A stretch of 64,000 nucleotides of DNA. Source: an uncultured Flavobacteriaceae bacterium. GTDB lineage: Bacteria > Bacteroidota > Bacteroidia > Flavobacteriales > Flavobacteriaceae. This document shows, one piece after another, positions 11,543-39,088 of the stretch. The stretch is from NCBI GenBank assembly GCA_937959395.1, contig CALGLR010000077.1:1-64000 (forward strand), in the 5' to 3' direction. The position numbers were made by a program, and so were the translations under genes. The stretch's first letter is position 1. Every line of letters begins with the position of its first letter. The notes beneath the pieces are model-generated. The model searched no databases and had not been told where the DNA came from. It saw only the letters and a program-made list of their open reading frames with translations.

Positions 11543-11558
11543 ATTTTTTCAAACCTAT

Positions 11559-11618
11559 ATTTGCCTACAATAAGGAATGATTAGAATTATTTGCCTACAA
11601 TAAGGAATGATTAGAATT
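11559..11618. repeat. Exact 30-bp tandem duplication
   Basis: Two identical 30-bp units (11559-11588 and 11589-11618), each beginning ATTTGCCTACAATAAGG. The first copy, with its left flank, forms TATATTTG, a perfect -7 promoter box (TAnnTTTG). The second copy is preceded by AATT instead, which destroys the box. The duplication lies just upstream of the truncated BtuF-like gene and lengthens its leader. Confidence 0.8.
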
Positions 11619-18870: not shown

Positions 18871-19216
18871 TGGCAGGTCTCCTGGCTCTCGTCTTAATAT
18901 TTGCCTTCCCATTCTTATACTTTTAGAACAGTGACTTAAAGTTTAATATTAAGCATCACATAAATGTGACAAAGATTACAGTTGCGGGAACAGCACAAGA
19001 ATGAAGATTATATTGTGAGCACGTTTAAATTTTTCAATTTGCTAAAAAATTGCTCTTTTGTATCTAATTTTAGTCCTTTTTTCATTCCGTAGCGATGCTA
19101 TGCAATTCAAAAAAGCCTTCAACCAAATTCAAAATAACTAATTTTCGCCTAAATACAAAAAGCTTAAACGAGTTCAATGAATCTTTTTCACTTGATTCCC
19201 TTTTAATCAATACCAT
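18871..19216 (-). promoter_or_regulatory. Cobalamin riboswitch interrupted by a palindromic element
   Basis: Reading the minus strand 5'-3', GGTATTGATTAAAAGGGAATC (19214-19194) and AAGTGAAAAAG give the 5' half of the aptamer. Then comes the 159-bp dispersed element, then TTGTGCTGTTCCCGC, AACTGTAA, a GTCAC segment, CACTG, GGGAAGGC and the B12 box AGCCAGGAGACCTGCC (18887-18872). All signature blocks are present and in order; removing the insert leaves about 187 nt, a normal aptamer length. It precedes btuB by 45 nt. B12 excess is expected to repress the operon if the aptamer still folds. Confidence 0.85.
19017..19175 (+). repeat. Dispersed palindromic element, copy B, inside the riboswitch
   Basis: Same orientation as copy A. 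The right terminal repeat (AAGCTTAAACGAGTTC) is nearly intact; the left one has decayed (GAGCACGTTTAAATTTTTC). The internal block ATTCCGTAGCGATGCTATGC is identical to the other copies. The flanks contain a possible 6-bp direct repeat TTCATT (riboswitch sense) and complementary AAGATT/AATCTT, so the insert extends a peripheral hairpin. Confidence 0.8.
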
Positions 19217-23396: not shown

Positions 23397-23477
23397 TTGG
23401 CTGTTGGCTGTTGGCTGTTGGCTGTTGGCTGTTGGCTGTTGGCTGTTGGCTGTTGGCTGTTGGCTGTTGGCTGTTGG
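23397..23477 (+). repeat. Heptanucleotide tandem repeat (TTGGCTG), 11.6 units
   Basis: Eleven exact TTGGCTG units plus TTGG, directly after the btuC stop. Degenerate related sequence (GCCAAAGGCAAATAGCTAGAGG) follows at 23524-23545. The array is perfect, so it is young and probably variable in copy number. It lies between two genes of one transporter operon. Confidence 0.97.
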
Positions 23478-24368: not shown

Positions 24369-25121
24369 TTAACTCTCTCTAAATGGTTTTGGTTCTACAT
24401 TATGTGGCACTTTAGTAGGAAAAGGTTGTTTATCTATAAAACACATAATAGGTAAATATTGCTCACTAAATTTCATTTGATAAGAATTAAACCATTTAAC
24501 TTTAAATAATTCTTTGGGAATAATTTTTTTCCTATCTCCATTTGGGTAAAACAAATCTTCTACTAGTTCTTTTTTATAACCACATAAAACAAATTCTGGT
24601 GTTGAGTAATTAACTACATGTTGAATAGTTTTTTTACTTTCTTCTTTTCCTCCTGAAATTATTTCTTTTTTAGTAGAACTTCTTTTTTTGAGAATCTCTA
24701 ATTTTTTAGTTTTAAAATAAACTATATTTCCATATACATATTTCGGGTCTTTGTAACTTGAAACTTCTGTAATCAAACTAATTTTATCACTGTTTTCTAT
24801 TTTATAAATTGGTTTCTCTCCATCCATTCTAGCTATGAAAAATCTAGTATAATTTCTAAGCATAGATTCATAAACTATTACTTCTTTAAACTCACTCTTA
24901 TTATCATCAAAAAAGATACAAGTATACTTTATCCTTTCAGCTATTATTTTACCATTAGACGTATCTACAATTTTCTTTTTTTCATCTTCAAAAAACACTC
25001 CCTTTACCACCATAAATGGAGGTACAAGTTTTCCATCTCCTCGTATTTCTAAATCGTAAAGTAATGGATGTGTTTTAAAAGTTACTATTTCCCCTATTTC
25101 AAATTCGTTTTTCAAAATCAT
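24369..25121 (-). CDS. Hypothetical cytoplasmic protein divergent from the reverse transcriptase
   Basis: A 250-residue protein with no signal peptide or membrane segment. It is rich in Lys, Glu, Phe and Tyr and looks beta-rich (GEIVTFKTHPLLYDLEIRG, GVFFEDEKKKIVDTSNGK, IVYFKTKKLEIL). Repeated short beta motifs around IVTFKT and IVYFKT suggest two related small-barrel modules (about 10-75 and 125-210). No family is recognised. It is convergent with btuD (12 bp apart) and divergent from the RT across the 452-bp structured region. It may be part of the same accessory insertion, but no functional link can be shown. Confidence 0.65.
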   Translation of the reverse strand: MILKNEFEIGEIVTFKTHPLLYDLEIRGDGKLVPPFMVVKGVFFEDEKKKIVDTSNGKIIAERIKYTCIFFDDNKSEFKEVIVYESMLRNYTRFFIARMDGEKPIYKIENSDKISLITEVSSYKDPKYVYGNIVYFKTKKLEILKKRSSTKKEIISGGKEESKKTIQHVVNYSTPEFVLCGYKKELVEDLFYPNGDRKKIIPKELFKVKWFNSYQMKFSEQYLPIMCFIDKQPFPTKVPHNVEPKPFRES

Positions 25122-25573
25122 TATTATTCTTGATTAAAATGGTATATTTAATATATAAAATAAGGAAGTTCTTTAGTTAAAGAAATATAACATTTGTTGA
25201 ACTACTGTATTAATTTTATATAATTAATCACTTAATCCGACCTTTTTAAATATAGGGATAATAAATATGGAGATTAGGTAAAATGTAATTTAAGTTATTT
25301 AGATAATACCTACAAGAACTTTGCCATGAAACTTTCGAAAGTGTCATGCAAATTCTTGTCAGGATACTTATAATTCCTAAGTTAAGGGGTATATCTGTGG
25401 TTTCTAAGGCTGTAAAGACTATTAAAGAGATAATTGCTTTCATTAAGTATAAGTATTTATTTAGAATGTACAAGTGCAACGTGAGTCGAGAACTTGGCTA
25501 ATGGTTCAATCATTCAATGATGTAAGTTATATATTGTTATAAGTACGTGCGAGAACTTCCTTTTATTTAATTT
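25122..25573 (+). ncRNA. Candidate structured non-coding RNA upstream of the reverse transcriptase
   Basis: A 452-bp region without a plausible gene but dense in secondary structure. Four collinear, nested complementary blocks close it: 25162-25172 with 25552-25562 (11 bp), 25185-25191 with 25526-25532, 25197-25202 with 25504-25509, and 25230-25236 with 25442-25448. Inside, 25313-25358 folds into a hairpin of about 21 bp with two bulged C and one mismatch. A direct repeat CGAGAACTT occurs at 25487 and 25550. Known DRT2 and DRT9 reverse transcriptases use an RNA encoded just upstream as template, so this is the expected place for one. Boundaries and fold are by hand. Confidence 0.6.
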
Positions 25574-27085
25574 ATGAAGAAAGAAAAAGATTGGTTTAAA
25601 GACAGGGGTTATCCACATTTTTCTAATAAGACACCTTTGTCTATTAGAAAAAACATTGAACGTTATGTTACTAGTTCCCTAAAGGTATCCAAGCATTCTT
25701 TTTCTCCTCTTATATTTAAAGAAATAAAACAGAGGCGTTACAAATCTTCAGATTTTAATGGAAAAATAAGACGCTCTCATAGAAAACAAAAAAATGAAGC
25801 TATTATTTCTAATACTAAAGTTAGAAACATATTATACGCAACCCACATTGATGCCCATATTTACTCATATTACACGCAACAAATTATTACTCCTAAATAC
25901 GAATCTTATTTAAAACAAAAAACTTTACTTTCAGATTCTGTAACTGCTTATAGACAAATTGAAACAGATGATAAACTAAAGTTTAAAAACAATGTTCATT
26001 TCGCAAAAGACGTTTTTGAAGAAATAAAACGAAGAGAAAACTGTGTTGCTCTTGTGCTAGATATTGAGAATTTCTTCCCCAGTCTTAATCATAAACAATT
26101 AAAACTAGCTTGGGCAAAAATACTAGATCATAAATCATTACCAAAAGATCATTATAATCTGTTTAAAGCGACTACTCGATTTTCTTATGTAAAACTGAAA
26201 GACTTAAAAACTAAAAAAGGTCATTTTGATGAAAAAGAATTAGCTAAATATAAAAAAAAAGGTAAGCATACTTTTTTTGAAAGTATTCATGACCTTATAG
26301 AATCTGATATAATTATACATAAAAATCAAAAATTAGATGATTCAAAAACACTAATGGGAATACCACAAGGGCTTCCAATAAGTGCTTTACTAGCTAATAT
26401 TTACATGCTCTCTTTCGATGAAGCAATAGTCAATAGCCTTGTATTGGATCATGATGTATATTATAGACGGTATTCCGACGATATTGTTGTTTTATGCAAA
26501 GAAAACCAAATAGATTTAGTTCAAGACTTTATTATTAGTGAAATAGAAAAAATTAAATTAAAAATTTCAAAGGAGAAAACGGAAAAAACACTTTTTAAAA
26601 TAAACCAAAATCGTTTACAATCATATAACATTAGCAATGATGGAACTTTAAAAGAAAATATTCCTTTAAATTATTTAGGGTTTGAGTTTTATGGTTATCA
26701 AACATTAATTAAGTCTAAAAATTTAGCTAAGTTTTATAGAGAAATGAAGCAAACGATAAAGCGTAAGCATAAAAGAGTAGAAACAATTAAAGAAAAACAT
26801 CTGTTAGATGAAGCTCCCATATTTAAAAGAAAAATATATCGATTATTTAGTTATAAAGGAGTAAAAACTAGAGAAATTCAATCTAAAAGGACAGATTATA
26901 TAAATGGAAAAGCACATACTCAATATTTTAATAGAAAGTTCAGAGGAAATTATTTGAGATATGCATACAAAGCTTCAGAAGAATTAGAAGCCCCAGAAAT
27001 AAAAAGACAATTACGTAACCACTGGAAAATACTTCAAAAGGCAATGAAGAAATATGATTTTTCAAATGTTAAGAAAGACTCTTAA
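25574..27085 (+). CDS. Defence-associated-type reverse transcriptase (DRT2/UG2-like)
   Basis: A 503-residue RNA-directed DNA polymerase. Motif A is LDIENFF with catalytic Asp163, motif B IPQGLPISALLANIY (PQG 264-266), motif C YSDD (300-303), motif D LKISKEKTEK, and motif E LNYLGFEF. The N-terminus begins EKDWFKDRGYPHFS, and KVRNILYATHIDAHIYSYY with NNVHFAKDVFEEI resembles the unknown-group DRT2 family rather than group II intron RTs: there is no maturase X or HNH domain, and no intron RNA around it. The C-terminal 130 residues are basic and helical (thumb or RNA-binding). It is preceded by a structured region and sits between btuD and rmuC. Subtype is uncertain. Confidence 0.85.
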   Translation: MKKEKDWFKDRGYPHFSNKTPLSIRKNIERYVTSSLKVSKHSFSPLIFKEIKQRRYKSSDFNGKIRRSHRKQKNEAIISNTKVRNILYATHIDAHIYSYYTQQIITPKYESYLKQKTLLSDSVTAYRQIETDDKLKFKNNVHFAKDVFEEIKRRENCVALVLDIENFFPSLNHKQLKLAWAKILDHKSLPKDHYNLFKATTRFSYVKLKDLKTKKGHFDEKELAKYKKKGKHTFFESIHDLIESDIIIHKNQKLDDSKTLMGIPQGLPISALLANIYMLSFDEAIVNSLVLDHDVYYRRYSDDIVVLCKENQIDLVQDFIISEIEKIKLKISKEKTEKTLFKINQNRLQSYNISNDGTLKENIPLNYLGFEFYGYQTLIKSKNLAKFYREMKQTIKRKHKRVETIKEKHLLDEAPIFKRKIYRLFSYKGVKTREIQSKRTDYINGKAHTQYFNRKFRGNYLRYAYKASEELEAPEIKRQLRNHWKILQKAMKKYDFSNVKKDS

Positions 27086-38361: not shown

Positions 38362-38940
38362 ATGTTCAATAAAAACATAAAATTAATAATTGCTGGTTTA
38401 ATTATAGCTACTGCTGTATGGCAATTTATAGAAGGAGGAATAGGAAATGGAATCATGCTTATTATGCTTTCTCTTATTTTTGTATTCCTTTATTTTAAAA
38501 ATGAAATAATACTACTTGCTTTTTTATGGTTACGTAAACAGGATTTTGATGGCGCAAAAAAATGGTTAAGTAAAATTAAAAACCCAGAAGCTGCTTTAAT
38601 TACTAAACAACAAGGGTATTTTCATTATTTACATGGCATTATGGTTTCTCAATCTAATATGAATGAAGCTGAAACACGATTTAAAAAAGCCATTTCTTTA
38701 GGTTTATCTATGGATCATGATTTAGCAATGGCTAAATTAAATTTAGCTGGAATCGCTTTTTCTAAACGTCGTAAGCTTGAAGCTCAAAATTTATTAGCTG
38801 AAGCTCAAAAATTAGATAAACAAGGTATGCTAAAAGATCAAATTAAGATGATGAAAGATAACATGAAGAAGGCACAAATGCCAAAGCAGCATTATGGAGC
38901 TGGAGGGTCTGTTAGACAACAAAAAAGAAGAAGTAAATAA
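38362..38940 (+). CDS. Membrane protein with TPR-like helical repeats
   Basis: 192 residues. Two membrane helices near the N-terminus (LIIAGLIIATAVWQFI and IMLIMLSLIFVFLYF) are followed by a cytoplasmic or periplasmic helical domain with TPR character (AKKWLSKIKNPEAALITKQ, GYFHYLHGIMVSQSNMNEAE, AMAKLNLAGIAFSKRRKLEA). The tail is basic, Met/Lys-rich (MMKDNMKKAQ) and ends QQKRRSK. A conserved flavobacterial protein of unknown function, probably a scaffold. An octanucleotide repeat begins right after its stop. Confidence 0.65.
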   Translation: MFNKNIKLIIAGLIIATAVWQFIEGGIGNGIMLIMLSLIFVFLYFKNEIILLAFLWLRKQDFDGAKKWLSKIKNPEAALITKQQGYFHYLHGIMVSQSNMNEAETRFKKAISLGLSMDHDLAMAKLNLAGIAFSKRRKLEAQNLLAEAQKLDKQGMLKDQIKMMKDNMKKAQMPKQHYGAGGSVRQQKRRSK

Positions 38941-38972
38941 TAGTTGGATAGTTGGATAGTTGGATAGTTGGA
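38941..38972 (+). repeat. Octanucleotide tandem repeat (TAGTTGGA) x 4
   Basis: Four exact TAGTTGGA units immediately after the stop codon. Like the 7-bp array at 23397 it starts at a gene end and has a TTGG core. Confidence 0.95.
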
Positions 38973-39088
38973 TGATAACTAATTGAAAAATTAAACTAAT
39001 CTTTAATTCATTCGTTGTTTTAATAAGTTAACTCTATTACTCTAGGCTAAAGATCTAACCAATCGAAAAATCGAAATACATCTTGCAG

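What the first reader, a model, noticed from the sequence alone, without database searches (positions are those of the whole stretch)
25574..27085. Stand-alone defence-type reverse transcriptase between btuD and rmuC
The protein has all RT motifs (Asp163, PQG 264-266, YSDD 300-303) but no maturase, HNH, integrase or retron-type accessory. Its N-terminus (KDWFKDRGYPHFS, HIDAHIYSYY, NNVHFAKDVFEEI) looks like the unknown-group RTs with antiviral function, nearest DRT2/UG2 by eye. DRT2 enzymes copy an upstream RNA into concatemeric cDNA. A flavobacterial member with a different RNA would be a useful new example.
Basis: partly seen in the sequence, partly recalled or inferred. Interest (0 to 1): 0.85.

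Follow-up and report, generated by a model that had tools for sequence, protein, structure and literature searches.

The report
Flavobacterial DRT2 with swappable toxin template
[quoted passage not shown] it belongs to a flavobacterial branch with an extra partner gene and a differently built RNA, and relatives appear to exchange the toxin-coding part.

Summary
It is not stand-alone. It is one part of a compact island between btuD and rmuC: a YodC-like gene (24369-25121, minus), a structured RNA of about 400 nt (about 25158-25567), and the RT. A YodC ORF sits upstream of the RT in 44 of 44 named loci of this RT clade with enough upstream DNA (one a remnant) and in none of 35 other DRT2 loci.

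The RNA is a new DRT2-type template. Two GUA motifs (25285-25287, 25468-25470) bound a 183-nt unit. Copied head to tail, its antisense strand is an endless frame of 61-residue repeats. Of 46 homologues (window included) 39 have a unit divisible by three, and all 39 are stop-free in antisense (0.6 expected from shuffles); seven break the rule. In 22 of those 39, but not in the window, the best Bacteroidota-type promoter lies at the junction (2.7 expected). Between relatives the template differs while RT and RNA scaffold stay alike, so Neo looks exchangeable.

Function is inferred from sequence and analogy; nothing was tested at the bench.

The parts
24369..25121 (-). YodC-like partner gene, 250 aa, modelled as two tandem small beta-barrel domains
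   Evidence: PADLOC RTasYodC 1.6e-89; upstream of the RT in 44 of 44 testable named clade loci; AlphaFold2 pLDDT 87.4
25143..25150 (+). TATATTTA, possible -7 box of the ncRNA promoter (Bacteroidota type, consensus recalled)
   Evidence: conserved TAnATTTa in the alignment of 46 loci; inferred
25158..25567 (+). structured ncRNA, ends approximate
   Evidence: conserved flanks; 34 pairs, 97.2% of cells paired, 182 both-side changes against at most 70 in shuffles; covariance model finds 18 of 19 held-out clade loci
25164..25172 (+). P1, 5' strand, pairs with 25552-25560 (joins the two ends of the RNA)
25199..25204 (+). P2, 5' strand, pairs with 25502-25507
25207..25229 (+). P3 hairpin
25231..25278 (+). 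P4 hairpin just before the template
25266..25269 (+). UAUG in the P4 loop, possible pseudoknot with UGUA 25467-25470 (counterpart of stem SL2 of KpnDRT2)
   Evidence: pairs kept in nearly all of 44 distinct sequences, but changes on one side only
25285..25287 (+). GUA-1, 5' edge of the template
25285..25467 (-). predicted template / Neo repeat unit: 183 nt, 61 codons, antisense to the ncRNA
   Evidence: open frame and length; sharp fall in conservation
25468..25470 (+). GUA-2, 3' edge of the template
25479..25483 (+). P6, 5' strand, pairs with 25544-25548
   Evidence: compensatory changes at two pairs
25484..25499 (+). P5 hairpin
25574..27085 (+). DRT2-lineage reverse transcriptase, 503 aa
24357..27143 (.). 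whole island between btuD and rmuC
   Evidence: a genome of the same genus has 112 nt between these two genes

Best explanation
It is an anti-phage module of the DRT2 kind made of YodC protein, ncRNA and RT. The RT binds the 5' and 3' scaffold of the ncRNA. On infection it copies the 183-nt template between the two GUA motifs; when it reaches GUA-1 the end of the cDNA re-anneals to GUA-2 and copying starts again, giving tandem repeats. Once double-stranded, the repeats are read on the strand antisense to the ncRNA as an endless frame of 61-residue hydrophobic, perhaps helical repeats, whose product stops growth. YodC is a non-enzymatic partner; my guess is that it binds the RT-RNA complex or its cDNA. 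Shown here from sequence: RT lineage, YodC co-occurrence, RNA pairing, unit length, open frame, repeated boundary motif. Inferred by analogy with published DRT2: RNA binding, template jumping, second strand, transcription, toxicity, defence, and the role of YodC.
For: RT: PADLOC Drt2 446.7 bits, tree. Units divisible by three in 39 of 46 loci, all 39 antisense-open, 0.6 expected from shuffles, sense strand open in 3. The same triplet at both edges in 35 of 45 loci (L052 left out), at most 10 at other offsets. RNA covariation. Best promoter-like site at the junction in 22 of 39 units, 2.7 expected. The same procedure recovers divisible, antisense-open units in 21 of 22 Pseudomonadota DRT2 loci. 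YodC with this RT clade and nowhere else among 299 genomes, bar one E 8.4e-4 match with five stops.
Against: Seven of 46 units are not divisible by three; L032, L033, L035 and L047 are unexplained. The window's own unit shows no promoter better than shuffles. Substitutions within Neo types are not enriched at third codon positions: 1353, 1155 and 1359 at positions 1, 2 and 3. NCBIfam Drt2 cut-off not reached. Relatedness of the loci inflates the counts. No data on cDNA, Neo or phage.
Confidence: 0.72

Rival explanations
1. The RT copies the RNA into single or repeated cDNA, but the cDNA itself, not a protein, is the effector; the open antisense frame is a by-product of composition or of folding.
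For: Neo sequence is poorly conserved and shows no third-position excess; the window has no clear junction promoter; DRT9 and DRT10 make DNA products that are not described as protein-coding in the abstracts seen.
Against: 39 of 39 divisible units are stop-free in antisense against 0.6 expected from shuffles, and the sense strand is open in 3; 39 of 46 lengths are divisible by three; repeats are more hydrophobic than shuffles, 0.77 against 0.23.
Confidence: 0.12
2. The module works as a DRT2, but YodC is an antidote that keeps Neo harmless until infection, not a partner of the RT-RNA complex.
For: YodC is a separate, strictly linked gene; with RT distance held constant YodC and Neo distances keep a weak correlation, r 0.19, none of 2000 permutations as high.
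Against: Without that correction YodC follows RT (r 0.59) and scaffold (0.58) more than Neo (0.35); pairs such as L044/L046 keep YodC at 85% identity with Neo at 5%. With RT held constant the scaffold gives a similar value, r 0.17, so the test does not decide.
Confidence: 0.2
3. YodC is a neighbour carried along in a shared defence hotspot, without a role in the system.
For: Many of these modules sit at one place: rmuC follows the RT in 25 of 41 loci L032-L072.
Against: YodC is also present in the 16 of those 41 loci without rmuC downstream, in either orientation (36 and 9 of 45), and the seven genomes with a sound YodC match are those with this RT clade.
Confidence: 0.06
4. The RT is a group II intron, retron or other mobile-element RT.
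For: Weak similarity to the TIGR04416 group II maturase, 68.6 bits, and to PADLOC retron models.
Against: 68.6 bits against a cut-off of 300; much higher DRT2 scores; place in the tree; no further Pfam domain over its cut-off.
Confidence: 0.02

Closest known systems
KpnDRT2 of Klebsiella pneumoniae (PMC11100668, PMC12039810)
   Same: RT of the same lineage; ncRNA upstream of the RT; template between two copies of a trinucleotide; unit divisible by three; endless antisense frame of hydrophobic repeats; in relatives of the window a promoter formed at the junction.
   Different: RT 503 against 425 aa; RNA about 400 against 280-281 nt with a long 5' part; unit 183 against 120 nt, 61 against 40 codons; GUA against ACA; Bacteroidota-type instead of sigma-70 promoter in relatives and none recognised in the window; an extra YodC gene. 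(KpnDRT2 figures.)
Other DRT2 branches without YodC (L002-L005, L008, L011, L014, L015, L017, L076-L081, L089)
   Same: DRT2 lineage; several RTs of similar length.
   Different: No YodC and no match to this RNA scaffold; their templates were not worked out here.
PADLOC 'RTasYodC' and 'RTasWYL-YodC' models
   Same: Show that an RT-associated YodC family was already known to curators in 2023; our gene matches the first at 1.6e-89.
   Different: The model carries no statement of RT clade, mechanism, RNA or Neo that I could see. That the names go back to Mestre et al. 2022 is recalled; that paper is not held.
DRT9, DRT10, DRT3
   Same: RT plus ncRNA making unusual DNA (abstracts listed).
   Different: RT scores for other DRT types are far lower (best Drt3a 62.9 bits); no endless protein-coding repeat is mentioned in the abstracts seen.

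Membership tests
DRT2 (UG2) | RT of the UG2/DRT2 lineage by profile and tree | tested here: met
   PADLOC Drt2 3.1e-134; DRT2 PDB chains are the only profile matches at 1e-10; groups with DRT2 in the tree
DRT2 (UG2) | score over the NCBIfam Drt2 equivalog cut-off (a naming threshold, narrower than the lineage) | tested here: not met
   358.4 against 390 bits; I therefore file it as a divergent DRT2-lineage member, not as that equivalog
DRT2 (UG2) | structured ncRNA directly upstream of the RT | tested here: met
DRT2 (UG2) | template between two copies of a short motif, length divisible by three, one stop-free antisense frame | tested here: met
   window 183 nt, GUA/GUA, one antisense frame open; 39 of 46 loci
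DRT2 (UG2) | the motif is ACA | tested here: not met
   the ACA pair nearest the edges in the window (25312, 25470) gives 158 nt, not divisible by three (counted); GUA fits instead
DRT2 (UG2) | promoter formed across the repeat junction | tested here: inconclusive
   not found in the window; best site at the junction in 22 of 39 units
DRT2 (UG2) | no further protein gene (as stated for DRT2 in PMC11100668) | tested here: not met
   conserved YodC gene
DRT2 (UG2) | concatemeric cDNA, phage-induced Neo, growth arrest, phage defence | not testable with these tools
   needs experiments
Group II intron / retron RT | RT scores over the curated cut-off of such a family | tested here: not met
   TIGR04416 68.6 against 300 bits; retron St85 54.1 against 235
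DUF2158 (YodC) domain, for the partner gene | Pfam DUF2158 match at the gathering score | tested here: inconclusive
   no match in the window protein; best E 0.0078, 11 of 33 members match weakly; PADLOC RTasYodC 1.6e-89

The most novel reading that the evidence does not exclude
This DRT2 clade is a constant chassis (YodC, ncRNA scaffold, RT) into which different endless-ORF cassettes are exchanged, like toxin cartridges: in relatives with RT 80-86% and scaffold 83-90% identical the Neo repeat can be as little as 5-26% identical. Some cassettes re-form a host housekeeping promoter at the junction. Others, the window's included, do not, and might be read from phage-specific promoters, which Wilkinson et al. 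predicted for diverse DRT2 systems.
Probability: 0.4. Interest if true: 0.87.

Novelty: new variant of a known kind. Interest (0 to 1): 0.72.

Why it matters
The first DRT2 preprint reports that Neo annotation was 'more challenging' in divergent DRT2 clades and raised the possibility of alternative mechanisms (PMC11100668). For one divergent clade this gives an exact, testable answer: template edges, repeat length, frame and a partner gene. If cassettes really are exchanged, the repeat proteins would be interchangeable toxins on a shared machine, and a set of natural swaps is at hand to ask what Neo proteins have in common and whether the promoter type sets which phages are stopped. The YodC link offers an accessory protein to test in a DRT2 system.

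Tried and rejected
ACA motifs as in KpnDRT2: the window's ACA pair at 25312 and 25470 gives 158 nt, not a multiple of three (counted by eye); dropped for GUA.

Other short repeats at the template edges: for the window several other pairs also give open units because the whole stretch is open (for example a 9-nt repeat giving 162 nt); I did not test whether relatives share them. For L032, L033, L035 and L047 no single alternative pair was seen that repairs all four; left unexplained.

Housekeeping promoter in the window's own unit: none better than shuffles. By eye, WIN, L037, L040, L043 and L050 have CTTG-N20-TAnnTTAC just before the junction; this matches 7 of 10 consensus letters and is not counted as evidence.

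Purifying selection on Neo by codon position: no third-position excess.

Viral contigs: 101 pattern matches, none a relative of the RT. Rfam: no family at gathering score in the island. PDB by sequence for YodC: three matches of E 0.26-0.34 only. PDB by fold for YodC: Foldseek best E 0.12; VIA best Z 4.4 over 58 residues, assorted ribosomal, Tudor and KOW-type barrels; no fold family is assigned and none excluded.

AlphaFold2 of a single Neo repeat: two helices, but pLDDT 66.7 and pTM 0.33; weak. The RNAalifold structure of the 3' part alone kept only P5; P6 was found by hand.

Literature: six searches listed no paper that I could recognise from title and abstract as describing a YodC gene with DRT2, or Neo in Bacteroidota. 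'YodC', 'Bacteroid' and 'Flavobacteri' give 0 hits each in the main texts of PMC12596737, PMC12039810 and PMC11100668. Supplements were not searched and many papers are not held.

Full report
THE GENE. The ORF at 25574-27085 codes for a 503-aa RT with D163, PQG 264-266 and YSDD 300-303, invariant in an alignment of 7 RTs. PADLOC gives Drt2 at 446.7 bits; the best family not called Drt2 has 87.2. NCBIfam Drt2 gives 358.4 bits, under its cut-off of 390. The only PDB sequences matched by a profile at 1e-10 are three distinct DRT2 chains. In a quick tree of 92 RTs, 42 YodC-linked RTs (window included) and L073 form one branch with SH-aLRT 100 inside DRT2, apart from 6 other RTs (several long branches elsewhere, and no bootstrap).

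THE PARTNER GENE. 24369-25121 (-) matches PADLOC RTasYodC. Of the 80 loci kept from the named-genome scan (84 found), 45 belong to the clade (L032-L075 and L110). 44 of them have a YodC ORF upstream of the RT; in L052 it is a remnant and in L071 its end looks cut short. The one without, L073, has only 485 nt of upstream DNA. None of the 35 other DRT2 loci has one in the DNA held. In 299 genomes of the family the YodC model was found in 8: seven are the genomes that carry this DRT2 clade, each next to the RT; the eighth is a match of E 8.4e-4 with five stops. Sixteen of the 299 genomes hold 17 strong DRT2 places in all (E 2.8e-130 or better), so nine genomes have DRT2 without YodC. YodC lies on the strand opposite to the RT in 36 and on the same strand in 9 of 45 loci, window included. 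A same-genus genome has btuD and rmuC 112 nt apart. rmuC follows the RT in 25 of the 41 loci L032-L072 and was not found in 16 (counted), so the module stays whole at different sites. The AlphaFold2 model (pLDDT 87.4) reads as two similar sets of strands, which I take as two small beta barrels; fold searches give only weak barrel matches, and Pfam DUF2158 matches weakly in 11 of 33 members. I take it for a non-enzymatic binding protein; its ligand is a guess.

THE RNA. The stretch between the genes aligns in 46 loci as conserved-variable-conserved. With the variable part left out, 34 pairs are formed in 97.2% of cells over 44 distinct sequences; 182 cells are changed on both sides, against a mean of 54 and a maximum of 70 in 300 shuffles, and 11-46 when the pairs are slid (L052 left out; the structure was derived from these same sequences, which favours it). 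P1 joins the two ends. P6 adds compensatory changes (U-A 26, G-C 18 at one pair; A-U 21, G-C 11, G-U 6, U-A 6 at another), with seven mismatched sequences at each of two neighbouring pairs. The loop of P4 can pair with the right-hand motif; this is conserved but varies on one side only. A covariance model of the 3' part, built from 27 sequences, found 18 of 19 held-out clade loci (not L052; L067 repeats L066), none of 44 other DRT2 loci, and one place in the own genome. The scaffold is specific to this clade among the loci searched.

THE TEMPLATE. The alignment suggested GTA at both edges of the variable part. From GTA-1 to the base before GTA-2 the window has 183 nt. Over 46 loci, 39 units are divisible by three and all 39 are stop-free in one antisense frame across the junction; the sense strand is open in 3; dinucleotide shuffles give 0.6. 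Lengths among the 39 are 171, 174, 183, 186, 189 and 192. The boundary triplets are identical in 35 of 45 loci (L052 left out), at most 10 at any other offset from -12 to +12, including GTT/GTT and GTC/GTC once each. In 107 pairs with similar RT and different Neo, identity is 0.28-0.47 from 25294 to 25463, 0.57-0.94 from 25164 to 25283 and 0.67-0.87 from 25464 to 25563 (window coordinates, ten-base bins). As a positive control the same procedure with ACA on 22 Pseudomonadota DRT2 loci gave 21 with divisible, antisense-open units of 105-132 nt; the sense strand was open in 4. Published units are 111-129 nt. The predicted repeat is hydrophobic (mean 0.77, shuffles 0.23), and a single repeat is modelled with low confidence as two helices.

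RESULTS AGAINST. Seven loci break the rule. L052 has a shortened YodC ORF within 30 nt of the RT and no match to the scaffold model. L051 and L073 have 172 and 170 nt with longest open runs of 43 of 57 and 46 of 56 codons. L032, L033, L035 and L047 have 182, 181, 181 and 185 nt with open runs of 52-59 codons; with these edges the frame changes at each junction. I cannot explain them. Differences within Neo types fall 1353, 1155 and 1359 on codon positions 1, 2 and 3: no third-position excess, a modest lack at the second. The window has no recognisable junction promoter.

PROMOTER. With TTTG-N17-23-TAnnTTTG as the Bacteroidota consensus (recalled), the best site of the antisense concatemer lies at the junction (-3 to +2) in 22 of 39 units, 2.7 expected; four are perfect (L038, L045, L046, L110), with the two boxes in neighbouring repeats. 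One search, unlike, sets no minimum for the -7 box; the loci are related, so the 22 are not independent. This mirrors the sigma-70 promoter of KpnDRT2 in the host's own type.

CASSETTE EXCHANGE. In the 36 loci with full RT and a divisible unit, RT and scaffold distances agree (r 0.85) but Neo agrees poorly with RT (0.35). 25 pairs have RT 80-86%, scaffold 83-90% and Neo 5-26% identical, for example L044/L046: RT 84, scaffold 87, YodC 85, Neo 5. The window against L036 gives RT 78, scaffold 84, YodC 72, Neo 10. Replacement by recombination is my inference; fast divergence of the template alone is not excluded, and some low-identity pairs may still share an origin (compare). YodC follows RT (0.59) and scaffold (0.58) more than Neo (0.35); with RT held constant it keeps weak correlations with both scaffold (0.17) and Neo (0.19), so this does not tell partner from antidote.

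LITERATURE. I read parts 1-4 of 8 of PMC11100668, parts 1-3 of 10 of PMC12039810, and passages by term of both and of PMC12596737. The first says that DRT2 systems lack further protein genes and that Neo was hard to annotate in divergent clades; the second predicts phage-specific promoters in diverse DRT2. I cannot tell whether this clade is among those in the first paper's supplement. That PADLOC holds an RT-associated YodC model shows that the link of YodC with some RT was already noted.

JUDGEMENT. Ordinary part: another DRT2-lineage RT. Not ordinary: a clade-specific partner gene, a rebuilt RNA, a larger endless ORF with edges predicted to the base, and signs that the toxin-coding part is exchanged.

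Noticed in passing
window 18878-19026 (-): Cobalamin riboswitch (Rfam RF00174, 34.9 bits), upstream on the other side of the BtuFCD-like transporter genes.
   Followed up: no
window 23397-23477: Perfect heptanucleotide tandem repeat TTGGCTG, 11.6 copies, between the permease and ATPase genes of the transporter.
   Followed up: no
window 11558-11618 and 38940-38973: Two further perfect tandem repeats: a 30-base unit twice, and an 8-base unit 4.2 times.
   Followed up: no
L052 3532-4001: Tenacibaculum dicentrarchi locus with a shortened YodC ORF directly before the RT and no match to the ncRNA scaffold model: looks like a deletion that removed the ncRNA.
   Followed up: partly
L032, L033, L035, L047 upstream of the RT: Four loci with one cassette type keep a long antisense open run but a unit of 181, 182 or 185 nt that is not divisible by three.
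   Followed up: partly
G054 contig C2, 34059-35753 and 82167-83705 (L009): One genome carries two DRT2 RTs about 46 kb apart; the YodC match lies next to only one of them.
   Followed up: no
L002-L005, L008, L011, L014, L015, L017, L076-L080: Further DRT2 branches (Flavobacteriaceae, other Bacteroidota, Psychrobacter) with ORFs of about 490-540 aa, no YodC and no match to this scaffold; their templates were not worked out.
   Followed up: no
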